Below, one piece after another: positions 30,763 through 53,400 of a stretch of DNA of 64,000 nucleotides (within the stretch, counting starts at the first letter, position 1; every line of letters begins with the position of its first letter). A model generated the notes under the pieces. The model saw only the letters and a list, made by a program, of their open reading frames with translations, was not told the DNA's origin and did not search any database. A program made the translations under genes and the position numbers. Source of the DNA: Bolinopsis microptera (Eukaryota > Ctenophora > Tentaculata > Lobata > Bolinopsidae); NCBI RefSeq assembly GCF_026151205.1, contig NC_087073.1, positions 19,978,658 through 20,042,657 on the forward strand, written 5' to 3'.

Positions 30763-30990
30763 ATGAGGTCTACCAAGATGATAATTCTACTGACCCTCGT
30801 TGCGCTAATAGCTTCCAGAACCCTCGAAGAAAATGGTCAGACTATTGGATGGGGCCGGAAAATAGCCGCGGCAGAAGAGGTTGTTGGAGATCGTGACACA
30901 ATTGCAGATGGAAGGCTCGTTTTAGGGATGGCAGAAGAGGAGCAAAGCCTCGGACTAGGTTACGGGGAAGAACGACAAATTTTAGAATAA
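30763..30990 (+). CDS. Small secreted acidic precursor, family member 1 (75 aa)
   Basis: Start chosen at MRSTKMIILL because the other three family members start at the same distance before the leader; an in-frame ATG at 30712 would add 17 residues. A signal peptide (IILLTLVALIAS) is followed by a conserved acidic lead (TLEEN) and motif A, GQTIGWGRK. Near the C terminus comes motif B, EEEQSLGLGYGEE. No Cys in the mature part. I do not recognise the family. If processed like known cnidarian precursors (acidic residue before Gln, Gly as amide donor before a basic residue), motif A could release a pyroGlu-TIGW-amide; this is inference. Poly(A) signal AATAAA at 31128-31133. Confidence 0.72.
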   Translation: MRSTKMIILLTLVALIASRTLEENGQTIGWGRKIAAAEEVVGDRDTIADGRLVLGMAEEEQSLGLGYGEERQILE

Positions 30991-31127
30991 GTGAAGTACA
31001 TCACCTGATGAGAGGGCCTATGTCATGGCCCAACTTTACGGCCCTTTCTTTCAAGGAATGGCCGGGAACTTAAGTCACGCAGCATAAACTGTGATCTTGT
31101 TATTTTCATTGCTTGCGTTTACCAAGG

Positions 31128-31133
31128 AATAAA
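31128..31133 (+). terminator. Poly(A) signal AATAAA of family member 1
   Basis: AATAAA lies about 140 bp after the stop codon of the precursor at 30763-30990, at a usual distance for a short 3' UTR. Confidence 0.5.
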
Positions 31134-31839
31134 TGATTTCACGGTCTTAAATTGATTCTGAGATTTTTTTTAACCGCAAGTCGGTATTTGGGATTTTGTT
31201 ATAATCATGATACTAGATTACGCATTTTGAAAATAAAGCATTATTACTCTAATCAACCAAGGATGTGAAGTGTGAACACTATGATCTCACCTTATAAATC
31301 CGTAAAAATTAATTGCATATCAACTGGATCATTACTGTACGTAAATCTGCTTGAAAACAACATTTATTTTTACAAATAGTAGATGCCACTTGTAGCTTTG
31401 TTGGGCAGCCAGATAATTTCAAAATTTTCTTTGAAAAATTGCATGTTTGATCAGTGTATGCACATTGTTCAAAGATGGTACATTATATTTATAAAAATTA
31501 TAAAAGATCTTTGAAGTTTAATTAATTTAGCAATAATTTTCGTTGGTCGAAATTTAGAAATTATAGTTGATCTTTGTAGTTTAAATTTAGTATATGATCG
31601 GCGATCATTTTTGTTGGTCGAAGTTCAAAATTTTTAAAGGCTTCGTACTTGTAGAAGCATTTTGAGGCTTACATAAGGTTTTCGGCAGGCTACAGCACCT
31701 CTTCAAATCTGTACAAACATTTTATGCTTATTTAGTGTTGTTGATTTTACGTATGTCAGCAAATTTATTCAGTCAATATATTTACATGAATTACATCTAT
31801 TATAATATGCTGATTCGAACCATTTTTCCACCAGTGTGG

Positions 31840-31847
31840 TATAAAAA
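31840..31847 (+). promoter_or_regulatory. TATA box of family member 2
   Basis: TATAAAAA lies about 94 bp upstream of the ATG at 31934. That allows a 5' UTR of roughly 60 bp, with no intron needed. Confidence 0.5.
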
Positions 31848-31933
31848 ACTAACAGAATCACAGCAGGATTAGGAGAAAGTTGTGACTGAAGCAAAGAGGA
31901 AATTCCAATAAACAACAAGACCTATTTTACGTC

Positions 31934-32161
31934 ATGCCACTCACCAAGATGATCATTTGCTTTAGCCTTCTGTTAGTGGTGACCTCCACAACCTTCGAAG
32001 ACGATGGACAGACCTTTGGATTGGGGCACAAGGTTCTCTGGGCTGATGCACTTGCAGAGGAAAACCTTGAAAAGGAGGTGCCACTCAAAGCAGGCGGGTT
32101 AGAATCTACAGAAGAAGAACAGCACTTTGGTGTTGGAAAGCGTGCTGACGAGAGTACCTAG
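31934..32161 (+). CDS. Small secreted acidic precursor, family member 2 (75 aa)
   Basis: The signal peptide MPLTKMIICFSLLLVVTS is followed by TTFEDD and motif A, GQTFGLGHK. A middle segment rich in Ala/Glu/Leu leads to motif B, EEEQHFGVGKRADE. Here motif B is followed by Gly-Lys-Arg, a classic amidation and cleavage site, so a pyroGlu-HFGV-amide is conceivable (inference). Same length and plan as the members at 30763, 34072 and 45159, on the same strand. Single exon, with a TATA box upstream. Family not recognised. Confidence 0.72.
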   Translation: MPLTKMIICFSLLLVVTSTTFEDDGQTFGLGHKVLWADALAEENLEKEVPLKAGGLESTEEEQHFGVGKRADEST

Positions 32162-32934
32162 ACAGTGGTAGCTTGGTCTGGAGCAAGATGTGGCTGGATG
32201 TTCATGTCATCTGAACACCGCCTCCATATCTAGACTGGGAGTAAAGGGGGTCCGCCGCCTTTTGATGCCACTTTGCACTGTACAAACGGCAAAATTTGGT
32301 TTAATCTGCTTCTTCCCTTGGCTTTAGTATCAAACAATAACCGACGAAAGAAAAATATGTGCATATTTGGCTATTTTGAAGTTTAAGACATCCTTTGCTA
32401 CTGCCATACTTATATTTATATATTGCTGTAAAGGTTTGGTGATTTAAGATGAGCATCTGAATCCCTCACCCCACCCCCTAAAACATTTCAATCTCTGCTG
32501 ATATGGCACAATACAAGCGATTCATAATATTTGCCATTTTTACTTTATATTAATTTAGCGTTAACGATCATGGGGGTGATTGAAGTAAACTGGTATAGAG
32601 GATAAATGACAATATCCATGGATCGCAAAGATTATTATTGATATGTTTTTTGATACAATTGTTTCGTATCTATCGGCCTAAAGCCAGGCATGTATTATAA
32701 CTGTATACTATTACGTTTGTATGCTAAAATAACGTGTGTTCACTGCAAGTCTAATTAAACAGAATTACTGATAAATTACCATAAATTTAAAAGATCTATA
32801 ATTTTAGATTTTGGATTAAGGGTTCTTCCAGTTGAAATTGGCTATTTTTAATTGATCGGAATTTCAGTATTTAAGAGTAGCTACAAATGTTTAAAATGTG
32901 TTTCTCTTCAGGATCCCACAGGAACACAGCAACA

Positions 32935-33138
32935 ATGGGAAAAACGAAGCTACTTTTAAATTTAACAGCGTGTTTTACGGCTTCGCTGGTTTTAAAAAAC
33001 GTACAAGAGAGTGAAGAGCTTAGAAAGCCCGAGTTGCTGATTGGTTTGAAGACCTTTTCGAAGTGGAAACGCACATGTTCGGACGGTAGCGAAGCACTAC
33101 AACTAAAACTGATCCTTGCCGAACATGATATTGATTAA
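32935..33138 (+). CDS. Small ORF inside the secreted-precursor cluster (67 aa)
   Basis: Starts MGKTKLLLNLTACFTASLVL, a leader-like stretch, then a basic and acidic mixture with a single later Cys (RTCSDGSE). It lies between members 2 and 3 of the precursor family on the same strand, but has neither motif A nor motif B. It may be a degenerate copy, an unrelated gene or a chance frame. Confidence 0.25.
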   Translation: MGKTKLLLNLTACFTASLVLKNVQESEELRKPELLIGLKTFSKWKRTCSDGSEALQLKLILAEHDID

Positions 33139-33229
33139 ACAAGTGGCTCACAGTGGATTATGGAAGTGGACATTTTTCATAAATATAAGTAGAACTGATT
33201 TTAACTTTCATGATTTATAGTGTTTAGAT

Positions 33230-33610
33230 CAGGCTTGTCTGCCGCCACCGAATGCCGCCTGGTTATTTGGCCACGCCGAACGTCGTCGATACAACCGGCC
33301 TGGCGTAAAGCGGCTTGCTTCTTTTGATTTTTCGAAATTTTCAAATCTTTCAAATATTTACTTTAAATACGCTGCCATGCACTATACTGCTCCAAACATA
33401 ACGATTTTCTGTAAAAGAAAATGTAATACTAATTGGACTCACTGCACCTTTTATTTTATTTTAAAGTTTGAAAATCAATTTTGTTTTCAAACACAGCAAT
33501 TACTGAATAGCACTAACATTTACTTTAACTTGATTTCACTCCGGCACCGGTGTTACTGTTATTTTGGTCAACGCCGCCACCGATCACTTGAACCACGGCG
33601 GACAAGCCTG
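33230..33610. mobile_element. hAT-type MITE, 381 bp, with 8-bp target duplication
   Basis: The left end reads CAGGCTTGTCTGCCG; the right end is its near-complement (CGGCGGACAAGCCTG). GTTTAGAT occurs immediately outside both ends (33222-33229 and 33611-33618), the 8-bp duplication expected of hAT transposition. No transposase inside. The TIR is unlike that of the larger hAT at 40636, so it is a different family. Confidence 0.88.
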
Positions 33611-34071
33611 GTTTAGATCTCGGATCGTCATCCGAATAGCTTTGATGATGCAATTTTTCGAAAATATATATATGTTTTGGGCACAATTGTTAGGGCAAAT
33701 TCGACCTGTCGCGTCGAAGGGAAATCTCCCATTAAAACATTAAGATCAATAACAGTATCAGATTGTTTGTATCATGACTGTCGATGAATTTTAATTGTCA
33801 ATTCAACCACGACCCACGATTTGACAAAATTGAATAATTCCGCTGTTATTTCCATCTATTTATATATTAAATTTATCATATTCCACGATTTTTATTGAAT
33901 GAAAAGTCAGCTCCATTTCCAAAATTGTTGTCCTCTGTGTCTCTGAGATAATATATCGGTTATTGAATATAGTTTTACTGGTGTATTTGATTTATATTAA
34001 TCCAATTTAAAAAACAAACCACACTCGTCTAGGGATGAAAAGAAGATAAGACTTTACAAAAAGATAAGAAC

Positions 34072-34290
34072 ATGTGCAAAGGAATCCTCTGCTTAACCCT
34101 CCTTGCTCTGGTCACCTCCTCGACAATAGATGATAACGACCAGGCCTTCGGATTAGGAGTTAAAACTGGCTTGTCTGGGGAACTTTCTGGAGATGCAGAC
34201 TCGATATTTGGGGGAGTAATCTTGGAGATGGAGGAGGAGCAGGGGTTTGGATTTGGCAATAAAGAAGAAATTCTCATTGATCTGACGTGA
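34072..34290 (+). CDS. Small secreted acidic precursor, family member 3 (72 aa)
   Basis: The signal peptide MCKGILCLTLLALVTSS is followed by TIDDN, motif A (DQAFGLGVK), a Gly/Ser/Asp-rich middle, and motif B (MEEEQGFGFGNKEE). The plan is that of the family, but the basic residue is not adjacent to the motif A Gly (GVK), so amidation is less expected here. Poly(A) signals (AATAAATAAA) occur near 34652. Same strand as the other members. Confidence 0.7.
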   Translation: MCKGILCLTLLALVTSSTIDDNDQAFGLGVKTGLSGELSGDADSIFGGVILEMEEEQGFGFGNKEEILIDLT

Positions 34291-34538
34291 CCGTGTTATT
34301 TTATGAATTTTACTAAGCATATAAACAGGACACTGCACATTTGTCTTTAATAATCGAAGGAGTATCTTACTCCTCGATACTTTTTTGGGAAAAACGTTTA
34401 TTGAATTGTTTAATGTGTTATTTTTGATGATATTTCCTGCATTAAAAGAATTGTTCTTATTTGCTTACCGCATAAATGTACAAATTAGAAATCAATTTGG
34501 TTTTGAAATAGTAATAAATGATGAGATCATAATTACAA

Positions 34539-34561
34539 GGGGGGGGGGGGGGGGGGGGGGG
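34539..34561. repeat. Poly-G tract, 23 bp
   Basis: Uninterrupted G run, one of eight long G/C homopolymers in 24-40 kb. Length in the assembly may be inexact. Confidence 0.9.
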
Positions 34562-35091
34562 TGGGGGGCAAAAGTCAGTACCCATACGTTGGCCTTAATA
34601 GCTCAGTCACTGTCACTGAGTGCCCAATTGAAATTACAATTGAATTCCATGCAATAAATAAAACACACATTATTTGGAGATAGGCCAAGAAATAAGTTTA
34701 CTCTCGCAGGAAACAAAAACTCGCACACAGTAGACTATAGACTTATAGAGTGTAGAACATGTTGTATGCTAAGAAAATATGCCCTCAAAAATAAAATAAA
34801 ACAAAAAGAAATTGTTTAAAGATTTACGTATTGGACGAAATCGCAAACCCAAAAACATAAAATTAATTTAATTTAAAGATTTGATTTTTTAATTAGTTTC
34901 ACCAAATTCAAATAAAAAATATCTTCTAATGAATTTATCACTAATTCAATGTTCCTTCATTTTATATTTAATCTAAATGTAGCTTTAAAAAATCTTTTAG
35001 TTCGAAGGGCCTAAAAATTGATTCGAAATTGTCCGGTCCATCGCTGCTCAAACATATAACTTTAAATGTCCTTTAGTTTCGCTAGCTCATC

Positions 35092-35196
35092 ATGAAGTGC
35101 CTCATTAGCTTATTGCTTTTTGGAATATGCAGTCTTTTCACAGTAGTTGATGTTCTTTGTTACTCAACTATAAGCGTCCTGAAATTATCAATGTAA
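35092..35196 (+). other. 34-codon hydrophobic ORF in a duplicated segment
   Basis: MKCLISLLLFGICSLFTVVD followed by VLCYSTIS resembles a signal peptide plus the start of a Cys-rich secreted protein. The segment 35077-35235 is repeated in diverged form at 36425-36562, where the ATG is lost. No donor of good quality follows, so it could be a lone first exon or a chance frame. On the minus strand the two copies share a splice-acceptor-like CATTGATAATTTCAG. Confidence 0.25.
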
Positions 35197-35238
35197 AAAT
35201 ATGTTCCAGTACAACAAAACAATTATTTCAACATTGAT

Positions 35239-35336
35239 CACCAGTGTCACAACTCACAAAGTTAATTACCAGTGTCGCAAAGTTAATTACCAGTGTCACA
35301 AAGTTAATTACCAGTGTTACAAAGTTAATTAATTAT
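35239..35336. repeat. 21-bp tandem repeat, about 4 copies
   Basis: Tandem copies of ACCAGTGTCACAAAGTTAATT with single-base differences. Confidence 0.85.
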
Positions 35337-35888
35337 ATAATAACTTAAATACTATTTTCTGCTGATTTCAATCCTGTTTCCACCCAAATGTCATTCTGTA
35401 AGTGTAATCACTGTGCTCAAGATTCTCCATAAAGATTTAAAGTAGTTGGATTCTAAATAATATTGGATCATGAGCAGTTCAATTTGAGAAGAAGATTTTC
35501 TTTGTCTTACCTTGTGTGGAAGAAGGAACAGCTCCTTCCTGCGGTGTCTGTATGATACATTAGGATCGTTTACAACAATAAACCTGCAAATTTCCTTGTT
35601 AAATGTGACATTAAACCATACCCTGGATTGTTGAGAGATATCAATGTTAGAATTTCGTCTCTCCCTCAGAAAAGCCAGTTTAAATTCAAAATCACAGATT
35701 AGCTAAGATGAAGGTACTTTAAAGAATCAATTCTTATGTTTGAGAATTATTGTGAACAAACTCGGAAAGAGCAGAAAAATTCCCCAACATTAAATTGTCA
35801 GTGACACAAGGCTAATAGTAATAGTTAAGTACTATAAAACGCACAATCATTCGATCAAAAGCTTGTGTGTCTTACCATTAACTTACAC

Positions 35889-37632
35889 TTAATAGGTCCG
35901 TGTTAGTACGCTTGTTATCGTCGAAAAGAATCTGATCCGCTTCATGACGAGAGTTGCTAATAAGCTCCGAGAAATCTCTTCAGCTTTTATCTTTTTATGA
36001 TATAAGGAGTCTACGTCCTGTGATGGTGAATTGTTGCGAATTTTTACTCGACCATGTGGAGAAATATCTGATAGCAAGAAAAACGCAAGAAAACGATAGC
36101 TAAACAAGGAAAAACATTAAAATTGTATTATGAGCTGCAAAAGGAATACGACGTGATACTACGCCAACATAAATTTCCTTCGTTCAATATTCCGTTGACT
36201 TACGTTTTCATGTTCTTAACTTATGTCGCCATCTTAATCTAGGATCGTACGCTTCTTTTTTACTGGGTTAACTGCATCTTGGAAAGAGTTGAACATTTGC
36301 ATGTTACACTAATAAGTTTTTATGAATGTCAAATATCGACTTAAGTCTAGAAATATTTTACGACAAGATCTTAACAAGTAAATAAACAATGTTTTTAGGT
36401 AACTTACTTTATTGAATCTGGTGACTTAGTCTCGCTAGCTCATCATTGTACCTCATTGCTTTAGGAATGCAGCCTTTTCACAGTTGTTCTTTTTTACTTA
36501 GTTATAAGCGCCTGAAATTATCAATGTACAATTTTGTTCCAGTACAACAAAAACTTATTTGCAATGAACTTGGTGTACTGAATTTTGAAGAGAATCGAAT
36601 TATATTATACTAATGCAGTTTTTTCAATGTTAATCTTAAATTTACGTCTAAAGAAATGTTTTCGGAAGATTTCAAGAAGTAGGAAACAAATTTTTCTGGT
36701 CGCTAACTTACTTTATGGATTATGGTCACTGCAACAATATAATTCCATATTTTCTTGCGTCCCGGTTATAGTGGTCTGGTACTACTCCAGGGATCTTCGT
36801 GTGATCAGTCGAATAGTTAGCAGATTTCTTCATGACTCCATCTATTAGTTATCCTGAAAAGCAGATCAGTTGAACTTAAAGCACCGCGATCTTCAGCTAT
36901 ATAGGAGCTGATCATTATAACAGTCAATCAAATATTGATAATCGCTATTTAATTTCAAGAGCTTAAAAAATGTATGCCTTTATATTAAAAATTAATTTTT
37001 GATACGGCTCTTTTATTCTTTTTTAACGGTGCTGTATAGTCCCTAATATTTAGGCACGTACCGTGGTATTTGTTGGAGCTGAAATGTTCTTACTTGAGTC
37101 CGCACTATTTAGCTAAAATATAACTGATTAGAATTAATTTGGATTGATATCATGAAGTACCACTATTACGATATCGTAATAGTGCTAATAATTATAGTGG
37201 TACTACCCGTATTGAAACTAAAAAACCAGTTCTATCAATTTCATATTTGAGATTGGGGACGGATCTCAAATGCAAACATAAATATAATTGTAAATTGATT
37301 GTTTAGATTCTGAAGTGGTACCTGTTGAGTGTTGAAATTTTATGATTTCCTCCGTGTAACCTTCCTTCATTCTGTTTTGCAGTTTACCAACTGTCCCTGC
37401 AGAGAGTAATGTGTTATTCAATTAAAATAAGCTGAGTTTCACAATATCACTGAATTAGAATATTAATAATTGACCTCATCAGACTATTAAATATTTGCCA
37501 TTATCGAGAGTTTATTTCCTGAAACTATTTGATGCCCGCGAAAATTATTTCATATTACGTTATCGTTTCTGATCTTATTAGTGCTTACCGCCTGCAAGAT
37601 TAAGGTCATCTTTCTTTCCGTGAGTAGAACCC
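35889..37632 (-). other. Candidate further exons of the FTP/sushi gene
   Basis: Three minus-strand stretches have splice signals and protein-like frames. 37632-37589 (longer form from 37660) reads THGKKDDLNLAG. 37396-37322 reads TVGKLQNRMKEGYTEE... . 36067-35889 reads DISPHGRVKIRNNSPSQDVD... and ends in TAA at 35891-35889. The exon at 37396 accepts phase 1 and leaves phase 1, which fits both the end of the sushi exon (38344) and the exon at 36067. A linear model skipping 37632 therefore keeps frame. No membrane segment or known domain seen. A further exon-like piece (35586-35511) does not fit in frame. Confidence 0.35.
37161..37184. repeat. Perfect 24-bp palindrome
   Basis: CACTATTACGAT followed by its exact reverse complement, with no loop. 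A third related piece (AATTATAGTGGTAC) follows at about 37190. Probably a foldback remnant. Confidence 0.8.
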
Positions 37633-37797
37633 CTTCAAGTTTCTTCGCTCTACTTTTTTTCTGAAATTTTAAACAGCTTCATGATTGCCTTATTAACCAT
37701 TTTATACCAAGCATGATGTACATTTTCACAAAGAATTTGTTTATTTATCTAGAAACATGATTACTTGATCAATATTGTACAGGATTTATGTTTCTAA

Positions 37798-37885
37798 ATA
37801 ACACTTACCTGGGGACCCCAGGCTATTATGTTCATGAACGAATAGAGATTCGGCGGAATGACAGGATGAGCGCCGCCCAGTAAAA
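37798..37885 (-). repeat. Dispersed repeat, inverted copy of 47379-47470
   Basis: On the minus strand this reads GGGCGGCGCTCATCCTGTCA...CCTGGGGTCCCCAGGTAA. The plus strand at 47379-47470 has the same blocks with a few differences. It contains the 12-bp palindrome TGGGGTCCCCAG-like core. Unclassified element fragment. Confidence 0.75.
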
Positions 37886-38343
37886 TAACACAACATTTAT
37901 TGAAAATTGTATTCACTGATGACTGATCGCCACCATACTACTGCTAAAATTATATTTGTCGGTTCGTATGATATCTTTGGTAAGGAAAATATCTAAAATA
38001 TAAACCTAAACCTATTCCAAAATTATTGAGGTGTTTTAATGTTCCAGATTTCGCGCCATGGCCTAGCCCATATATGTTCATCAGGTTCTGTTGGCCAGAC
38101 AGAACTAAAGTGTAAAATGTTTGTAGCGCCTAATCAGTCATCACGATCTCGAAATTTTTATTTTGCTCTGCGGTCTATAGTTTCCAAAGTAACTCGCACT
38201 AATAACGTGAAGCTCGCAGCATCTGTTTCTCGTGCATATAATATATTATAAGTATATATGTTTTACGACATAAATATTAATTTAAATGTTTAAATGTTAA
38301 TCATTAACTTAATAAGCTATCTTAATAAGCAGGTTAAACATAC

Positions 38344-39403
38344 TTATGATTTCACAAAGTGGCGCATCATGGACAAGACCAACTATCTCCCCATCCAGAC
38401 ACGTCACTTTTCCCCCTCTGTTGATGAACCCTGTTTCGCAATGTACCGTCATCAGGGTTCTATGTGCTACAGGAAGTCCAGGCTCCGTTGATGACACGTT
38501 CTTCAGGCTCAGTTCCTTGCAACCTTCGGTAGATATTGTAATTTTAGAATGTCATATTTTCGCGCAACTAGTAAATTGTCGTGAAATTTTGTCTAATGAC
38601 GCTTTAAAAATATAGCTAATAGTATAACTCATGAAGCTATGACATGATATAATTTGACAGTTTCTGAATAATATATCTGGAGAAGCAACTTAAGATTAAT
38701 GAGTTCAATAGACTACCTAATTGTGCGATGATCACTATTTCAAACACACCGATGAAATTCGACCCACTTATTTCTACAGTGTCTCCAAGTTTACATCCGG
38801 AGGGGACATAATCTCCAGGGATTGTGTTTTCATGGTACACTGTGAGGGGATAATTATCACAAGTATAACTTCCCTCACAGATACACGTGTCTCTAGAACA
38901 GGTGTACTGCGTGTTCTTTTCCTGTGTATAATAATGCACCACCTGCTTAATGCAGTGTTCCTTATCTAGGGACGCTCTAAACCAGGCCTTATTAAACCCT
39001 CCTGGTTTTGCAGAAGAAAGGGTGCTCAGATCCCTGTCTATAGCATTGTCTGCTCCACTCTTAGCCACGTTATCTTCCCAAGTCGCAGACTGAGACACAG
39101 AGGCAGGTGTTATCTCACCTGGTTCCTCTGGTCTTAGTGCACCTGAAGTAGTGAAAACTTCACATTATGATCATACTGTTTTCAATTAGTCAACTTAGGG
39201 AAATAGTGTGGATTTGAGTTGATTACAACTAAAATGTTATAAATATTGAGTAATCAATCGAAGGATTAACTTAAATCTACCGCTACTATTAGCTATTATT
39301 TAAAGCACTGATATAATCACTAATTCGAGTGTATCACCAATTCACTTTTACCTTTGAGGCGTTGCCAGAGCAAAGCCGTAATGATGATTAAGGTTGCTTT
39401 CAT
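38344..39403 (-). CDS. Secreted fucolectin-like (FTP) plus sushi-like protein
   Basis: Exons 39403-39352 (signal peptide MKATLIIITALLW), 39142-38717 and 38523-38344, all phase-matched with GT-AG ends. Exon 2 encodes an F5/8 type C or fucolectin/tachylectin-4-like fold: VSQSATWEDNVAKSGADNAI, then KAWFRASLDKEHCIKQVV, a Cys-rich loop (TCSRDTCICEGSYTC), and DCK/GCK-GDTVEI with a final EIVIIAQLG. Exon 3 encodes a four-Cys sushi/CCP-like module (CKELSL, VHCETGFINRGGKVTCLDGE, PLCEI). Such secreted lectin-like proteins often act in recognition or adhesion; the ligand here is unknown. Exon 3 ends in phase 1 without a stop, so the protein continues, probably into exons further left. The acceptor of exon 3 (ACCGAAG) is weak but is needed for the first sushi Cys. 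Confidence 0.72.
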
Positions 39404-40040
39404 GTTCGGGTTCCTTATGTCCTAATTTCTTAATATATGAAGAACAAGGGTATTATTTAATTTAATAAACAAATTATTCACAAAAAAATAATGCATCGAT
39501 GTTTATTGTTTAATGAGTAATTGGTATTTTAACATTAGAGATTTCGGTTCGACTATGTTCTCATTCTGCTGTTCTGTGAAAAAGGATGTATGTCAAGTTG
39601 ATGTCTTTTGGGAAAATTGGACTAACATGTTGTTTGACCAATTATAGGGTCTGTCAGCTAACAAACTAACAAATGTGCAGGGTATCTTAAACATCCGCTA
39701 CAGCTTAGCAACGAGGCAAGTGAGGAAAGCAAGTACTACTACTGTATACAAATGTGCTAAAAAGCTTAACCATAAACTGGTCTCCCGCACACTCAGATGC
39801 TGATTATGTTTGGCCCAATTGTATTTATATTTTGTCAACGTACTCGCATTACAATTAAAATATGCAGCAAAACCGACAAAAAAGGCTATAAAGCTATAAA
39901 ATCTGACTATAGCACTAGCAAAGAAGACTACTTATAGCTTTCTTTCTGTGACGACAGGCTTTCTTATATTCAACGAATATACTCCTCGAAATTAACACAA
40001 CTCTACGATAGTGAATAGTGATGGGTGGTTATATTGGTTA

Positions 40041-40063
40041 CCCCCCCCCCCCCCCCCCCCCCC
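40041..40063. repeat. Poly-C tract, 23 bp
   Basis: Uninterrupted C run, the right-most of the long G/C homopolymers. The DNA around it (39.5-40.6 kb) shows no gene. Confidence 0.9.
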
Positions 40064-40782
40064 ATCATCACTCATCAGTGGCTATAAATCTGGATATGGC
40101 TAGGCTGAATAATTCTTCAAGTAGTACTCGATCGTAGCCTTTAAATAGTGTCTTATAGAGTATAGACGCTATGTCTTTGCAAAACTGATTAGGGAGGAAA
40201 ATCATGAATAACAACTGATGAAGCTTTGTTAGCAAATTGCCGACGGTTTTTTCAAAGTACCTCAAGAATAAATTACTATTAGACAGGCAAATTAGGTTTT
40301 TTTCTTCCTTTCAAAATATCACTAGAATAACCTGTTATGCCAAATAAATATATAGGCTTAGACTAGGGTCCGTCAGTTAACAATGCTTTATCAATTATCA
40401 TTCATGATGCTCCCCTTAAACGATAATTGGCTAATCAGTTTAAAAAATTGCATACAGTATACTACAGTATACTTTTAACTTCTTGAAGACGCCTTTACCA
40501 GTGGTTAGGGGTACCGATGCGAATCGGTAATTTTAACGACATAACGGACACTTTAAGTTTATGCACAATTTACACTTAACGCACGGATAACACAGGGGTA
40601 ACCATATGTATACGAGTTATGGCTATTATCTTAACTAGGAACCGACCGGAAATCCGGCTGAATCCGGTTCCGGCCGGATATCCGGCTTCAAAATCCGGTT
40701 CCGGTTCCGGCTCCGGCTGGAAAAAAAATTGCCGGATTTTTGCCGGATTTCAGTTTTTTTACCGAAAAAAAAATCAAAAAAA

Positions 40783-41835
40783 TATTTTCGGCTAATAATG
40801 AACAGGGTAGCCTGAATCGTGGAAAAAAAGTGGTTTTCAGAAAAACTTTTTAAAAATGTTGACTTAGAAGTTTTTCGGTCCGAGTCGTTCTCGAGACGTA
40901 CCTCCTGTATCGAGAGCTCCCGCTTCCGAGCTCGTGTTGCAAAGGGGAGGCCTGCCTTCCAAGATCACATTACCGGGGGGAAACCTCGAGTCCAGAATTG
41001 TGTATCGATGGGTAGGTGCGGACTTCGAAAAACCGAAAAAATATTTTCGGCTAATAATGAACAGGGCCGGGTAGCCTGAATCGTGGAAAAAAGTGGTTTT
41101 CAGAAAAACTTTGAAAAATTTTGACTGAGAAGTTTTTCGGTCCGAGTCGTTCTCGAGACGTACCTCCTGTATCGAGAGCTCCCGCTTCCGAGCTCGTATT
41201 GCAAAGGGGAGGCCTGCCTTTCGAGATCACATTACCAGGGGAAACCTCGAGTCCAGAATTGTGTATCGAGGGGTAGGTGGGGACTTCGAAAAACCGAAAA
41301 AATATTTTCGGCTAATAATGAACAGGGTAGCCTGAATCGTGGAAAAAAGTGGTTTTCAGAAAAACTTCGAAAAATTTTAACTTAAGTTTTCGGTCCGAGT
41401 CGTTCTCGAGACGTACAGCTCCTGTATCGAGAGCTCCCGCTTCCGAGCTCGTGTTGCAAAGGGGAGGCCTGCCTTCTGTGATCACATTACCAGGGGAAAC
41501 CTCGAGTCCAGAATTGTGTATCGAGGGGTAGGTGGGGACTTCGAAAAACCGAAAAAATATTTTCGGCTAATAATGAACAGGGTAGCCTGAATCGTGGAAA
41601 AAAGTGGTTTTCAGAAAAACTTCGAAAAATTTTAACTTAAAAGTTTTCGGTCCGAGTCGTTCTCGAGACGTACCTCCTGAGTCCTGTATCGAGAGCTCCC
41701 GCTTCCGAGCTCGTGTTGCAAAGGGGAGGCCTGCCTTCCGAGATCGCATTACCGGGGGGAACCTTGAGTCCAGAATACAGAATAGTGTATCGAGGGGTAG
41801 GTGCGGACTTAGAAAAAACCGGAAAATATTTTGGG
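40783..41835. repeat. ~258-bp tandem array inside the hAT element, 4 copies
   Basis: The block GGCTAATAATGAACAGGG recurs at about 40790, 41049, 41310 and 41565, giving spacings of 259, 261 and 255. Each copy includes TCGGTCCGAGTCGTTCTCG, an imperfect GAGCTC palindrome pair (GAGCTCCCGCTTCCGAGCTC) and GGGGAGGCCTGCCTT. Short open frames across the array are by-products of the repeat. Confidence 0.93.
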
Positions 41836-42325
41836 CCACCTCCCTGGGCTAGCCCCCGGCTATAATCGCAAAATTTGCAGTATTAAATCTTCTGATTATG
41901 AAATACGAAATATGAAGGTCACGTGTTCAGGGTCTGGGTAGCTACTTAATTAGCTCATTACTGCAATCATGTGACTCAGCTCTAGACGCCAGACGGTGAT
42001 TAGTACTGTACTAGACAGTGCCTGCTTACGAACAACCTTATTAAGCACCTCTGGTTGTAAGTCACGTGACCCAATGATACTCAGACTTGCATGAAAAAAA
42101 GGGAATTCGCACAAACGCGCTCAATCAGGGGTCTGGCAGCATATGCCAATTAGATATCATTTCTGATTATTACTCGTCTAGTGTCGTGACTCGTGTCTAC
42201 TCGTGTTACATTGTGTCTGCTACGTACTGCTTGTTTAAGCAATGTCTAGTATAGTAGATAGGAAGATTTGTAAAAAAACTATATCTGTTCGGACGTTGAA
42301 GCCGCCCTAAGTCGAGTCGAGTAGT

Positions 42326-42468
42326 AGTAAATCTAAAACATCGTCCGTCTGGTTGTTCTACTCAGAAAAAAATGGGATCCCTTATGCAAGCTGCAAGAAG
42401 TGCTCGATGAAGATTAGGCGTGGAAAGGAAGGAAATTTTCCGGCAACATCCGGCTGCCTTTTATTTCA
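42326..42468 (+). pseudogene. BED-type zinc finger remnant of a hAT transposase
   Basis: The frame reads SSVWLFYSEKNGIPYASCKK then CSMKIRRGKEGNFPATSG and LLFH. The VW-F, CxxC and TS-x-L-x-x-H pattern is the BED finger found at the N terminus of hAT transposases. Nothing catalytic follows; the frame runs into the terminal CCGG-rich repeats. It supports the hAT assignment of the surrounding element. Confidence 0.75.
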
Positions 42469-42593
42469 CTCTGAAACCACCGGTTCCGGTCCGGCAAAAT
42501 CCGGCTTGCCGGATTTGAGATCCAAATCCGGCTGAATCCGGTCCGGCAGCCAAAACCCCAATCCGGTCGGTTCCTAATCTTAACTAAAGTACA

Positions 42594-42783
42594 TCATTTG
42601 ACTAAAGAAGAAGCTAAACCCAACCTTGGCCTTGGCCAACTGGAGCGAGGAGGATGATGAGTTTGAGGAGTTCCCGGTAGAAGAGTGGAAGCAGGAGGAT
42701 ACTGACCAGGCTGACTTGCCGTCCTCTGATTATCAATTACAGCTAGATTCCAACGGAATTGCCGGATTTGACCATGGATCATG
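42594..42783 (+). pseudogene. SEM1: SEM1/DSS1 (26S proteasome subunit) retrocopy, frameshifted
   Basis: SEM1 is a tiny acidic subunit of the 26S proteasome lid that also binds BRCA2. Here one frame gives TKEEAKPNLGLGQLE, and a shifted frame continues SEEDDEFEEFPVEEW, the hallmark SEM1 motif. The second acidic/WEDNW half is largely missing, then YQLQLDSNGI resembles the SEM1 C terminus. There is no intron. The frame change and the lost segment make it non-functional. It begins about 10 bp after the right target duplication of the hAT element, so the transposon landed next to or in it. Confidence 0.62.
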
Positions 42784-43378
42784 AGCAGTTTAATTTGAGA
42801 AAGCGCTCGTTGTTAGTACTTGAATAATCATGTTTTAGGGTGCGGTATTAAAAATGTTTATTTTTTGATTTTCGATTTTGACCAAGAAACGATGAAAATA
42901 ATTATACCCATTTTTCCAGCTATTATAATTGGACCTTAGGATTCGAACCAAAGGACCCAGTATGCAACCTAATAACCTAACATCAGATCTAGAAACCTAC
43001 CACTCTATTAGTTAGTACCACTTGACCTTTAGATCCACTCCAAAAGACCTGGCATGTTACTTTACTATCCGAGATAGTTTCAATGGTAAGAAAAACAGGG
43101 AATGAGCAGACCATAAGTCAAAGTGAGTAACGGCCAATGCAACCCATCATACTGCGTCTCCTAAATACACAAAATCCAGGGCCAGGGGAGTCAGAAGGAT
43201 GTCACTTTGAATGTTTTATTCATTAACCTGGTCGAATTGAGATGAGCAATTTAAATTTTAAGCCGTCAAGGATATCTTGAGTGGTAGGAAATTTTGACAT
43301 AAATTGTAACTGGGGGAGGTTGCCCATCGCGTAATTGAATTATTCAGAATATCTATCCAATAAAACCTTATCACTGAA

Positions 43379-43507
43379 TCACGTGACTTGATTCCATGTC
43401 CGTTATTGGCCCTCAGGAGGCTGCGTACTATAATGCTCCATATTCACGTGACTTGATTCCATGTCCGTTATTGGCCCTCAGGAGGCTGAGTACTATGCTC
43501 CATATGC
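43379..43507. repeat. 65-bp tandem duplication
   Basis: Two near-identical copies starting TCACGTGACTTGATTCCATG, containing CCGTTATTGGCCCTCAGGAG, with one substitution and a 3-base difference. It lies in an otherwise empty stretch (42785-45158) that holds no other feature I can support. Confidence 0.9.
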
Positions 43508-45158
43508 ACGATAACCAGGTTTTGTGCGAGCAAATTTTATCCCGGAGAAACTTTGTGAGTTGACATAGTATTAGAGATTTGTTTAAAGAGCTCATCTTTG
43601 AGCACTTGTCTACTTGGCGACAAGTATTCAACTTCAAAGCAAAGGAGCTACTCCTTTAATATACGTACGGAGCCGAGAGGAAGTTTTTGCAGGGAAACCT
43701 TAAGTGTCACCAAAATATATGAATCTGCGTTAATTGCTCGGGGTAAATTGCAAGGACCTTTTAAAGTTATGCTCGGTAAATTTCCTTTACTGAAACTATT
43801 AGTATTAAGTTGACAACCATGGATCATGGAGATATGTGTGGAAATTTATTGAAGTGTTTAGTCTTTTTTATGGGACATGTTTTTTACCCATATTCCTATT
43901 GTACAGTTTATGCATACCATTTATTGAACAACCAATTAATTAACGTGTAGTTTACGTCTTTTGGTCTGCCAAGTAAAGTATTGCCGCAAAGTTAAAGTAT
44001 CAGCAAGCCCGAGGGAAATACCATTTTATCACGATCAAGTCAAGATATTGTGGGACTTCCATATCCAGACCGACCATGTTAATAGTTAGGCCACGTGGTA
44101 CCTACTCCTTTTTACTAAGTGTTTTACTCTTTTTCTGAACTCTAGAATGTGACTGAGGAGTGAATATATTTGTCCTAGTATTTTTTTTAAAGCTTGACGG
44201 TGCCAGGCGGTTCTAATGACCAATTAAAACATACAAAACAATAGTGAATAATAATCCCTCTGTTCAGGGCACTGCACACTATATGGGTCATGTATAGTAT
44301 GAAATCACCCCAACACTTCAATAGCCTACAATGAAATCAAACCAAAATATTGCGAAAACTATGAAGTTTTGTGTGCTCATATGGAACGAAAACAGAAAAA
44401 AACTAGTATACCAATAAACTAATATAGTAATCGGCTGCAAGTACACACATATCTATTATCTACGGACTACGCATATGTAGGGACACACACACACTAAAAT
44501 TAATGGAAATAATTACCGGACTTTATTATTTACAGACCTTAATGCCACAGACATTATTTATACGGACGTATTCACTAAAGGTCTTCGGCGTGAAAGAAAC
44601 ATTCGTGATAATTATGACCGATAAGGTATGTCGTACTCTGCAGATAATGGGACTATAGGTAGGTAGTCAGTTGCTAAATCAGGCATTGTAAGTGTAACTT
44701 TGTCTCCAGTCCCGAGTGAGTATCTCTAAATAATTTAAGTTAACTCCTTATATTTCTTAACAGTGAGACGGTAATGTAATTGTTTCGGTGAATCTATTGC
44801 TAACTTCTATTCGTATTTTGGTTGTCCAAAATGAAATTAGGCTAGCGTACAACATAATTTCTTTAATAGTGAAGGTATTTTAGACCCTGGATCTAATTAT
44901 CTGATTGGTGCTAATTGCACAAGAATGATCTGTGTCTTGAGGACTACATGTTATTTTGAAGTTTAATCAGATGAACAACCTGATTAGCAAGTTGTAACAA
45001 AGGAAATGCTGCAGGTCGCACAACGAGACGAGAAAAGTAGGTCAGACTCGTCATTACGACGTGAGCAGTACAAATACAGCATACGAGATAGCGATCCTCA
45101 CTTATATTTCCATTAAATCGTATCTTGCAGCAGCTCTCTTTATTCGCCAAACTACACC

Positions 45159-45365
45159 ATGATGAAATTCACCAAGACTCTTATCTGCCTGACCCTTGTG
45201 GTCCTTGTCACTTGCAGAGCCCTCGAGGAGGACGACCAGACCATTGGTTGGGGCAGAGCAGAAGCAGCTGAGGGAAGTATGGATCAGGGAGCTGTTGAGA
45301 TGGAGCTTGCGGAGGAACTTGAGGATCAGCACCTTGGTCTCGGATCAGGAGAGGAAATATTTTAG
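45159..45365 (+). CDS. Small secreted acidic precursor, family member 4 (68 aa)
   Basis: The signal peptide MMKFTKTLICLTLVVLVTC is followed by RALEED, motif A (DQTIGWGRA), an acidic Glu/Met/Ala-rich middle, and motif B (LEDQHLGLGSGEE). Motif A is identical in its core to member 1 (QTIGWGR), although the genes are 14 kb apart and separated by a hAT element and a minus-strand gene. Same strand as the others. A poly(A) signal AATAAA lies at about 45659. If cleaved before Gln and amidated at Gly, it would give the same TIGW-amide as member 1; this is inference. Family not recognised. Confidence 0.74.
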   Translation: MMKFTKTLICLTLVVLVTCRALEEDDQTIGWGRAEAAEGSMDQGAVEMELAEELEDQHLGLGSGEEIF

Positions 45366-50476: not shown

Positions 50477-53400
50477 ATGACAAGTTGGATGGTATGGAGT
50501 TTGTTGGTGGTGATGTGCAGAGCGGCAGGGGGAGAGTCAGCTGAGGATCAAGTGGTAGAGTTTGAGGACAGCAATGATACAGATCCTTTTGTGGATGACT
50601 TTGAGGATATTCCGTACAGGGGAAATATCCCGTCCTTCATCTCGGTTAGAACTTATTTTAATTGTTTGAAAAAACTAAATAGTTTTCCATAATAAAATGG
50701 ATTAAGCTAAAATTTTGATTTTTTTTGAAATTTGTAATTCAAACCATTTCTGAAATACATGATTGTATTTTTCAGCCGCTTCACTACGGTATAGTATTAA
50801 AAGCGAACCTGAGAGATTGGGTTTACTCCGGAAGGACGCACGTGCTTATAAACAGTAAGTTTAACACCATAAGAATGTTCCAAAACTGAAGAGATACAAG
50901 GCTGGTGCAGGGCCGGTGCAGGGCCGGTGCAGGGCCGGTGGCAAACCACACCATCAATCCGTGCAGCTGTATTCTGTACCACAAAAACCTGCAATATTTA
51001 ACTTTACGTTAACTGCAAAATTATATTGTTGCGTGCACACTTCCTCTCATTTAGAACATTTCCACTTCAATTTAAAATATTACGTTAACCACGTCATGTG
51101 TTTGCCCTGCTTCCAGTACCATGACCCCTGTCACAATTTCAGTCACTGAGCCGTGCGACCAAGTGCCTATTCACTCTGCTGGATTAAACATCAGCGACGT
51201 TTTCATGGCGACATACGAGCCGGAGGGGCGAGGCAGGAGAGTTCCGATCATGCAAGTGGTAGAAGACAAAAACCAAGAACTATTGCGGATTTATCCCCGT
51301 AGAATTCTTTATTCTGGAGTATATCAGCTGTTCATTGATTTCAAGAACGAGTTTGTTTCTGATTTGTTTTGGGGGTTTTATCAGAGCAGTTGGACGGATG
51401 AAAAGGGCTGGAAGAACAAAATGGTGACCACCCAGTTTTCACCTTACTGGGCTCGACACGCCTGGCCCTGCTACGATGAACCTAAATATAAGGCAACGTT
51501 AGTAAAAAATCAATCCTGTAATAGTTTTAGCGTTTGAGTAATGCAAGGTAGACAAGGTGAAAATGTGAACTTCAGAAAGCTCATTTCAAAACTCAAAATT
51601 ATCAAATGACCACTTTATTGGTGTCATGCTTTGTTAGAAAAGAACAACATTCTCAATTTCAGGTTTAAGTTTTTCGTTGATCACGAGTCACAGTACTATG
51701 CCCTGAGCAACGGTGCTCAAGAGTCCAGAGAACCGATACGGTCGGGCTGGGTGCGGACCACTTTCGAAAGGACCCCTGAAATGAGCACCTACATTACTGC
51801 CATGATTATTACAAATTACAGGTACCATACCATTACCAACTACTCAACTACCACTATCACTACCAGCATGTATTTAAATAGGATCTGACATGTTACTTTT
51901 GAGTTGACATGATATTTCTGACTAGGCAATGGGGGAGGGGACTGGTGAATGAACTTCTAAAATTCTGGGGAAGTCAGATCACAATCTCATGTGGGGTATT
52001 CATTCATACTTTAAACTTAAAGAGCAACCATTTAAACTAAACACTAATTTAGCTGAGAAGTATAATTTATGACAGTATGACTGTAGGGATATCAAGGGAA
52101 CGACAAAATCTGGAATTCCTGTTAAACTGTACGGGAGTCATGAAAAGCTACAGACCAGTCGGAGGATGCTTGACACAACTATAAAAACTATAGACTTCCT
52201 TGAAGAATACTTTGGGTAACGTTATATCTACTGTCTGCGTTTTACTTATTTTCTTGACAAATTAGCTAAAGAACGCATGATTTGCGCCGTATTCCGTACA
52301 GCCTAACCTCATTAGCAGCCCTCAACCTCTGATTTTTACAATCTTCTCATCATCCTCTCTCTACTGATAACGTAACGACCTCAAGGATATTTCAGGGTAG
52401 AGTACCCTATGAGCAAATTAGACGTGGTACCTGTACGGAGATTTGGGGTGGCTGCTATGGAAAACTGGGGTCTCATAACAGGTAATTCCGAATCACACCA
52501 CACACGGGCCACCGGGCTGGACCAGTTTCTGCAGAATTCTTGGCTGTAGCTGATCTGCCATGACAAATGATGATTTAAGGAAATTTTACCCTGGAGCCAA
52601 ACTGTATCCTGGATTTCGATTCTCGTAATTAGAAAGGCGTGATACTCAACATCAGTCAATAAATATCGAACTTTTAACACGTTCGACAAATTTTAACAAA
52701 TTTGTCAAACTTTTGTCCAGTGGCCTGAACTTGTACAATCGAGCAGATTTGTTTTTTAAATCTCTCCATCAATGCAATGATCAACTATATGATAATGGTC
52801 AACCATGAGTTGACAGTCAAATGATAAACTTGTACAATTTAAATGAGTTAACAAGTGTTATACGCCAAAAATCACAGATAAGATTGGACTGACAGAACTA
52901 TACTATTACAGTCCTTGATGTTTTTGATTTCATATTAAATTACCATTACTAGTTTGAAACGTACTGAAAAAAACGTATAATTTTATCTTGATTGCAAGGA
53001 TCTTCACAACTTATTGAAGTATTAACGAGATTTGGTTTTCACACGTTCGCGTTTGCAACTTTCCCGCTCTTTTTCCAGCCTGCACAGTGCACATATTGAT
53101 ACAGATAAAATATGTTGACAATAATGAATAATGTGCATGATTTAAGTTTTTCGAATGTTTGGATATCATATTACGCTTATCTCATTGAGATTGTAGGAGA
53201 AAAATGTATTATAACCAGTAAAGCTAAGTACAAGAAATAAGATATTTCGATTATTGATTTGGATTTGGCGACAAAAGAAAACAGTAGGAGTATATTTTCT
53301 GAAATTCCAGAGTCGAAGACTTTCATGAGCTTCTAATTTTTCAATTTTTTTGAAAAGCAATAAATTAAATCAAGATTAAAACTCAAAGACAAAATGCTAA

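What the first reader, a model, noticed from the sequence alone, without database searches (positions are those of the whole stretch)
30763..45365. Unrecognised four-member family of small secreted acidic precursors
ORFs at 30763-30990, 31934-32161, 34072-34290 and 45159-45365 encode 75, 75, 72 and 68 aa, all on the plus strand. All have a signal peptide ending ...(T/A)S or TC, then T/A-(L/F/I)-E/D-rich lead, then Q-(T/A)-(I/F)-G-(W/L)-G, a variable acidic middle, and near the C terminus E-(E/D)-Q-x-(L/F)-G-x-G. Flanks and middles have diverged while both motifs held, which is the pattern of selection on two short segments. No Cys framework, so they are not typical defensins. I cannot place the family in anything I know.
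Basis: partly seen in the sequence, partly recalled or inferred. Interest (0 to 1): 0.85.

Follow-up and report, generated by a model that had tools for sequence, protein, structure and literature searches.

The report
Likely comb-jelly peptide-hormone precursor family
Four small genes in this comb-jelly genome window, with two relatives elsewhere in the genome, look like precursors that are cut into short signalling peptides such as pyroGlu-Thr-Ile-Gly-Trp-amide, adding probable members to the little-known chemical vocabulary of one of the earliest animal nervous systems.

Summary
Four plus-strand ORFs at the stated places encode related, apparently secreted, acidic proteins without Cys after the leader, under purifying selection. 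The two 'motifs' are one repeated unit, acidic-Q-x-(hydrophobic)-G-(hydrophobic)-G. Whole-genome searches found two further members: one with four head-to-tail copies of EEDDQTIGWGKA (one reads EEDG), one with three such units. That is the layout of a multicopy amidated-peptide precursor: Q behind acidic residues, then glycine and K/R. In the window genes K/R lies within two places of the unit in 6 of 8 cases (1 of 20,000 shuffles reaches this). The genome is a ctenophore close to Mnemiopsis, by inference Bolinopsis microptera. In its congener B. mikado, acidic cleavage, pyroglutamate and amidation are known from mass spectrometry (PMC9525235, passages). I predict pQTIGW-amide as main product, pQHFGV-amide from 31934. 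Member 34072 holds QAFGLG, the letters of B. mikado's FGLa epitope, but V-K follows, so FGLa membership stays open. No transcripts, peptides or other ctenophore precursors could be examined, and published supplements could not be read, so first discovery is not claimed.

The parts
30763..30990 (+). Member 1, 75 aa, ORF open from leader to stop: leader + two units
30838..30855 (+). Unit QTIGWG followed by RK (predicted pQTIGW-amide)
30943..30960 (+). Unit QSLGLG followed by YGEER (no basic residue next to G; probably not amidated)
31934..32161 (+). Member 2, 75 aa, ORF open from leader to stop
32009..32026 (+). Unit QTFGLG followed by HK (non-canonical)
32120..32137 (+). Unit QHFGVG followed by KR (predicted pQHFGV-amide)
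34072..34290 (+). Member 3, 72 aa, ORF open from leader to stop; no unit with a canonical amidation site
34141..34158 (+). Unit QAFGLG (letters of the B. mikado FGLa epitope) followed by VK
   Evidence: epitope from PMC9525235 passages
34240..34257 (+). Unit QGFGFG followed by NK (non-canonical)
45159..45365 (+). Member 4, 68 aa, ORF open from leader to stop; closest in the window to the two multicopy genes elsewhere
45237..45254 (+). Unit QTIGWG followed by R; this R is the only K/R of the mature part after its first residue
45327..45344 (+). Unit QHLGLG followed by SGEE (no basic residue)
45071..45158 (+). Upstream stretch shared with the gene on C5:22.46 Mb (83% over 83 bases) and, as part of a longer match, with C2:9.99 Mb (75% over 388 bases); contains AAATACAGCATA; promoter or leader role is inferred

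Best explanation
These are prepropeptide genes of a ctenophore (by inference Bolinopsis microptera). The protein enters the secretory path by its hydrophobic leader. The acidic pro-region is cut just before Q by the acid-directed processing reported for ctenophores and cnidarians, and the new N-terminal Q cyclises to pyroglutamate. At the other end the chain is cut at K/R, the basic residue is trimmed, and the exposed glycine becomes a C-terminal amide. The main predicted product is pQTIGW-amide: one copy each from 30763 and 45159, four from C2:9.99 Mb, two plus a pQTSGW-amide variant from C5:22.46 Mb; 31934 would give pQHFGV-amide. The peptide is then secreted and acts on receptors, as a neuropeptide or neuroendocrine signal. 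Shown here: open frames, shared unit, tandem copies, selection, placement of basic residues. Inferred: secretion, cleavage, pyroglutamate, amidation, expression and signalling.
For: Own-genome searches find two further members with tandem units: C2:9994735-9995031, 4 x QTIGWGK; C5:22459047-22459610, QTIGWGK, QTIGWGK, QTSGWGR. The QTIGWG codon pattern has 9 places in 264.65 Mb against 0 for the reversed-pattern control; 8 of 9 lie in this family and the ninth (C88) is an 8-aa open stretch. Of 17 units in six genes, 10 have K/R directly after the glycine and 16 have D/E at -1 or -2; in 45159, C2 and C5 all 8 basic residues beyond the first mature residue sit directly after a unit. K/R at +1/+2 of the window units: 6 of 8, reached by 1 of 20,000 shuffles. 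pN/pS 0.27-0.58 in 15 of 15 pairs. PMC9525235 (passages): B. mikado precursors use acidic as well as basic cleavage sites, pyroglutamate and amide ends are described, and the amidating enzyme is abundant in peptidergic clusters of Mnemiopsis. PMC11087051 (section 5): in Nematostella some peptides are cut N-terminal to Q, often with D/E one or two positions before. The same genome holds a probable VWYa precursor: leader exon, acidic exon, terminal exon ending NRVWYG-stop.
Against: No RNA, peptide or relative from another species could be examined. Member 34072 has no canonical amidation site, and the C-terminal unit of four of the other five genes lacks one (YGEER, SGEE, AGEG, AGEG) although it is kept; the simple precursor model does not explain that. 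The acid residues before Q are no more than composition gives: 7 of 8 window units, reached by 1304 of 20,000 shuffles. Five basic residues in 30763 and 31934 lie away from the units. C5 also has about ten copies of a 33-base unit, AEGNMGGGAEL, with no peptide logic, so tandem copies here can be minisatellite growth.
Confidence: 0.7

Rival explanations
1. The family is the already described FGLa precursor family of B. mikado (C-terminal QAFGL-amide; Mnemiopsis gene ML030511a), of which 34072 would be the direct counterpart and the QTIGW genes lineage paralogues. (This is compatible with the mechanism above; it competes only on novelty.)
For: 34072 encodes QAFGLG. Of the 4 places of the QAFGLG codon pattern in the genome it is the only one with a hydrophobic leader in the same open frame. 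Two wider QxFGLG patterns with a following basic codon gave 22 places against 36 in the control (this pattern also admits a following Q) and 1 against 3 in the control; of these 23 places I read six, five of them without any precursor-like frame, the sixth being C10 below. PMC10826244 (passage) says that the antibody peptides, RWFa excepted, are identical between B. mikado and Vallicula, so QAFGL should be present in B. microptera.
Against: In 34072 the unit is followed by V-K, not by K or R. The FGLa codons could be split by an intron; the probable VWYa precursor here is split into three exons. One other QAFGLG place (C10) reads QAFGLGKRSE-stop behind a possible splice acceptor, with a perfect dibasic site, though in G/T-rich repetitive DNA. 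In the 9.6 kb read around it there are three weak leader-like frames, Arg-Glu repeats and one acidic exon 3.4 kb upstream that reads as a coiled coil of another gene. The FGLa precursor sequence itself could not be read.
Confidence: 0.33
2. The whole 50-60 aa acidic chain is the active secreted product (for example an anionic antimicrobial, mucus or colloblast component), and the conserved units are binding or assembly motifs, not peptides to be cut out.
For: C-terminal units are kept although most lack a basic residue after the glycine; C5 has a long AEGNMGGGAEL array, as in structural secreted proteins.
Against: In three genes all basic residues beyond the first mature residue sit directly after unit glycines (8 of 8); unit number varies and K/R is kept in every N-side copy of these three genes; no family or solved-structure match.
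Confidence: 0.2
3. Fast-evolving secreted ORFs or decaying duplicates without a present function.
For: Synonymous sites near saturation between most pairs, and changing linkers.
Against: All six frames are open, pN is below pS in 15 of 15 pairs, and the C2 v C5 pair keeps pN/pS 0.27.
Confidence: 0.05

Closest known systems
FGLa amidated peptide of Bolinopsis mikado (Hayakawa et al. 2022, PMC9525235; passages read, supplements not)
   Same: 34072 holds the letters QAFGLG; the family unit Q-x-(hydrophobic)-G-(hydrophobic)-G fits QAFGL-G; same genus by inference; acidic cleavage known there
   Different: 34072 lacks K/R after the glycine; 8 of the 17 units read QTIGW or QTSGW and only one QAFGL (7 QTIGWG + 1 QTSGWG beside 30763's, i.e. 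9 W-type units in all); the FGLa precursor was not available for comparison
VWYa precursor (Hayakawa et al. 2022) and its probable counterpart here at C4:13.748 Mb
   Same: Leader, acidic pro-region, C-terminal glycine as likely amide donor
   Different: Three exons, one terminal NRVWYG directly before the stop; does not carry the Q-x-x-G-x-G unit
Acid-cleaved, pyroGlu, amidated neuropeptides of Nematostella (PMC11087051, section 5 and passages; Antho-RFamide-type examples partly recalled)
   Same: Peptides starting at Q behind acidic residues and ending in an amide
   Different: Different peptide sequences; PMC9525235 reports no similarity of ctenophore precursors to cnidarian or bilaterian ones
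Arthropod A-type allatostatins, FGL-amide (recalled; not compared)
   Same: C-terminal FGL-amide resembles QAFGL and QTFGL
   Different: Two or three shared residues only; no homology tested or claimed

Membership tests
Ctenophore short amidated (neuro)peptide precursors | N-terminal signal peptide | tested here: inconclusive
   Hydrophobic 16-19 aa leaders ending AS/TS/TC in all six; no signal-peptide predictor on hand
Ctenophore short amidated (neuro)peptide precursors | Acidic and/or basic cleavage sites flanking the peptide | tested here: met
   D/E at -1/-2 of 16 of 17 units; K/R at +1 of 10 of 17. The acidic part is not beyond composition (1304 of 20,000 shuffles); the basic part is (1 of 20,000)
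Ctenophore short amidated (neuro)peptide precursors | Glycine amide donor next to a cleavable basic residue, at least one copy per gene | tested here: inconclusive
   Met in 5 of 6 genes; 34072 has GVK and GNK
Ctenophore short amidated (neuro)peptide precursors | Mature amidated peptide detected by mass spectrometry | not testable with these tools
   no peptide data on hand
Ctenophore short amidated (neuro)peptide precursors | Expression in peptidergic cells | not testable with these tools
   no expression data on hand
FGLa precursor family | Encodes QAFGL with amidation glycine and a cleavable site | tested here: inconclusive
   34072 has QAFGLG followed by VK; C10 has QAFGLGKR but no precursor-like gene around it was found; intron-split codons not excluded
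FGLa precursor family | Sequence homology to the B. mikado FGLa precursor or ML030511a | not testable with these tools
   Sequences are in supplements; ML030511a is named in one held paper only
Cys-framework secreted peptides (defensin/toxin-like) | Conserved cysteines in the mature part | tested here: not met
   0 Cys in all six mature parts

The most novel reading that the evidence does not exclude
A ctenophore peptide-hormone family not yet described in print: pQTIGW-amide and kin, six precursor genes on two chromosomes in one species, with unit copy number and unit sequence diversifying gene by gene (QTIGW, QTSGW, QTFGL, QAFGL, QHFGV), so that ligand repertoire and dose evolve by gene and unit duplication; the known QAFGL peptide may be one branch of it.
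Probability: 0.38. Interest if true: 0.65.

Novelty: new member of a known kind. Interest (0 to 1): 0.5.

Why it matters
[quoted passage not shown] Their peptides are few and showed no similarity to cnidarian or bilaterian precursors (PMC9525235, passage), so each precursor family is a usable marker for cells and a ligand for orphan receptors. The predicted product is a five-residue peptide that can be synthesised and tested at once. It is an ordinary kind of thing (a secreted peptide precursor), in an unusual animal.

Tried and rejected
Rejected: 'the genome is Nematostella', my first guess, with which I read cnidarian papers first. Contig lengths, glutamate-receptor loci 74-78% (part 1) and 70-77% (part 2) identical to Mnemiopsis ML032222a and the VWYa-like gene point to a ctenophore near Mnemiopsis. 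One receptor query (L029) had only vertebrate and other non-ctenophore receptors among its 18 listed hits; the other (L036) had ML032222a first.

Rejected as chance: C88 QTIGWG place; C2:8.94 Mb QAFGLG place; C34, which reads QAFGFG in an open frame without a leader; C10 QAFGLGKR, less surely; QxFGLG places on C5 (three), C3 and C11; a C6 coiled-coil match (its twin L010 was not read). The other matches outside the family (on C1, C3, C5:2.15 Mb, C8, C9, C10) were judged low-complexity from their table rows and not read. Of the 23 places of the two wider QxFGLG patterns, six were read (C10 among them) and 17 were judged by number against control only. I first took the NRVWYG places for negatives and later read one as a three-exon gene. 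In one search the C5 gene was out of register in its first part; its figures there are dropped and replaced.

Print searches: 'TIGW' with Nematostella, 0 papers; 'QTIGW' anywhere, 0 papers; TIGWamide, IGWamide and TIGW-NH2, 0 occurrences in the 20 papers listed of 434 (swamped by unrelated words). Papers searched by passage for IGW or QTI: PMC11087051, PMC7523074, PMC7042181, PMC9525235, PMC6756747, 0 occurrences in each main text. Supplements were not readable and Sachkova et al. 2021 (recalled) is not held, so absence in print is not shown.
Full report
What was checked. They share a hydrophobic leader, an acidic lead, Q-(T/A)-(I/F)-G-(W/L)-G, a variable middle and E-(E/D)-Q-x-(L/F)-G-x-G, with 10 invariant columns. 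An HMM of the four finds only these four in the six-frame window (next hit E 0.69), and the unit pattern occurs 8 times in the six-frame window, all 8 in these ORFs (both were derived from the sequences). Shuffles of the mature parts do not reproduce the similarity for four of six pairs (0 of 2000 each); the other two pairs are reached by 7 and 2 of 2000.

One unit, not two motifs. Set side by side, both motifs read Q-x-(I/F/L)-G-(W/L/F/V)-G behind acidic residues (one of 17 units, QTSGWG on C5, has S in the third place). Each window gene thus holds two diverged copies of one unit. Two matches in one protein arose in 0 of 20,000 shuffles for each of the four genes (the pattern was read off the data).

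Two more members. The whole genome of the window (264.65 Mb, 232 contigs; window = C2:19978658-20042657) was searched with five of the six members as queries, C5 not among them. Besides the four there is a 98-aa ORF at C2:9994735-9995031 with four head-to-tail copies of EEDDQTIGWGKA (one reads EEDG, and the last runs on as KAEAA), and a 187-aa ORF at C5:22459047-22459610 with QTIGWGK, QTIGWGK and QTSGWGR followed by about ten copies of AEGNMGGGAEL (tandem repeats). Both end, like the window genes, in the second unit form (EEEQHFGLG). Flanks: C2 and 45159 share 75% over 388 bases upstream; C5 and C2 share 91% over 88 bases, C5 and 45159 83% over 83 bases upstream; downstream the three pairs share 70-90% over 225-267 bases. 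So 45159, C2 and C5 form a dispersed younger branch. 30763, 31934 and 34072 show no shared flanks at the threshold used, apart from two 24-25-base matches of 30763 downstream to C2, and read as older tandem copies. The codon pattern for QTIGWG occurs 9 times genome-wide, 8 in this family, against 0 for the reversed control; the ninth, on C88, is an 8-aa open stretch.

Coding and selection. Over 15 pairs of the six genes, pS is 0.31-0.85 and pN 0.09-0.41, pN/pS 0.27-0.58 (counting after Nei and Gojobori, uncorrected, few sites, 12 of 15 pairs with pS 0.67 or more). For 30763 v 45159 the first unit has pS 0.92 and pN 0.10, the leader pN 0.27 and the C-terminal unit pN 0.33, so the first unit is the best held part of that pair and the second is not. 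The frames run open from leader to stop in all six, so I read them as single-exon coding regions; no transcript was seen.

How it probably works. Outside the leader there are 20 basic residues in the six proteins apart from the first mature residue; 10 sit directly after a unit glycine and 15 within two places of it; the other five are in 30763 and 31934. In 45159, C2 and C5 all 8 sit directly after a unit. In the window genes K/R at +1/+2 is seen in 6 of 8 units, reached by 1 of 20,000 shuffles that keep the units fixed. D/E at -1/-2 is seen in 7 of 8, but composition alone gives that in 1304 of 20,000. A Q behind acid, a hydrophobic end, a glycine and a basic residue is the processing grammar of amidated peptides in these animals. 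For B. mikado, mass spectrometry showed acidic and basic cleavage sites, with pyroglutamate and amidation described (PMC9525235; passages). For Nematostella, cleavage N-terminal to Q, often with D/E one or two positions before, is reported (PMC11087051; section 5 read). The prediction is pQTIGW-amide from four of the six genes, pQTSGW-amide from C5 and pQHFGV-amide from 31934. Secretion, cleavage, cyclisation, amidation and receptor action are inferred, not shown.

What does not fit. 34072 has QAFGLG-VK and QGFGFG-NK, neither canonical. The kept C-terminal unit of 30763, 45159, C2 and C5 lacks a basic residue directly after it. It may serve in folding, sorting or as an acid-cut unamidated peptide; I cannot tell. 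The C5 array shows that tandem growth can happen here without making peptides.

Which animal. The genome has 32 matches to a glutamate-receptor domain. Of the 12 loci held from that search and compared, three are 74-78% (part 1) and 70-77% (part 2) identical to the ligand-binding domain of Mnemiopsis leidyi ML032222a. A gene with a leader exon, an acidic exon and a last exon ending NRVWYG-stop matches the C-terminal epitope of the B. mikado peptide VWYa. Of the contigs whose length was printed, eight are 16-26 Mb and two are below 0.1 Mb. PMC10232365 (passages) reports 13 chromosome-scale scaffolds and about 254 Mbp for Bolinopsis microptera. The species name is an inference; 'ctenophore near Mnemiopsis but not Mnemiopsis' is the firmer statement.

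Relation to FGLa. B. mikado FGLa antibodies were raised to Cys-QAFGL-amide (PMC9525235), and except for RWFa such epitopes are identical in Vallicula (PMC10826244, passage). In this genome the QAFGLG codon pattern has four places. They are 34072; C34, which reads QAFGFG in an open frame without a leader; C2:8.94 Mb, a short frame reading KQAFGLGFAT; and C10, reading QAFGLGKRSE-stop behind a possible splice acceptor in G/T-rich repeats. Around C10 the 9.6 kb read hold three weak leader-like frames, Arg-Glu repeats and one acidic exon 3.4 kb upstream that reads as a coiled coil; the same scan finds the acidic exon of the VWYa-like gene. So 34072 is the best candidate for an FGLa gene by letters and leader, C10 by its dibasic site, and neither fits fully. 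I leave membership open.

Verdict. A real, ctenophore, probably peptide-hormone precursor family; a new member of a known kind unless the unread supplements already list it. No Pfam or NCBIfam model passes its cut-off and no solved-structure sequence is related (best E 1.5).

Noticed in passing
L060 8131-8848 (about G000:C4:13747630-13748347): Probable VWYa neuropeptide precursor in three exons: leader MKCFVVMVTLLVLSQSAS..., an acidic exon, and a terminal exon ending NRVWYG directly before the stop, so that the amide-donor glycine would be the last residue.
   Followed up: partly
51076-55224: Exons of an M1-family aminopeptidase on the plus strand (PF17900 E 8.9e-21, PF01433 E 1.3e-10), about 6 kb downstream of 45159.
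   Followed up: no
20898-23497: Two long tandem-repeat stretches open on both strands (INTQELHLRDY / LLSVDIIPQMK type units), probably a minisatellite rather than a gene.
   Followed up: no
1583-6857: Series of long minus-strand open frames, very acidic then Ser/Pro-rich, no Pfam match for the two tested; perhaps one large multi-exon gene.
   Followed up: no
40635-41850: Several near-copies of a unit with overlapping open frames on both strands, looks like a tandem or mobile repeat.
   Followed up: no
18480-18752: Exon of a calcineurin-like phosphoesterase (PF00149 E 1e-05).
   Followed up: no
G000, e.g. L029, L036: Glutamate-receptor matches: 10 of 32 lie in open frames of 900 aa or more, that is apparently without introns.
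   Followed up: no
L003 1687-2020 (C5:22459233-22459566): 33-base coding minisatellite AEGNMGGGAEL, about 10 copies at 98% match, inside a secreted-precursor frame.
   Followed up: no
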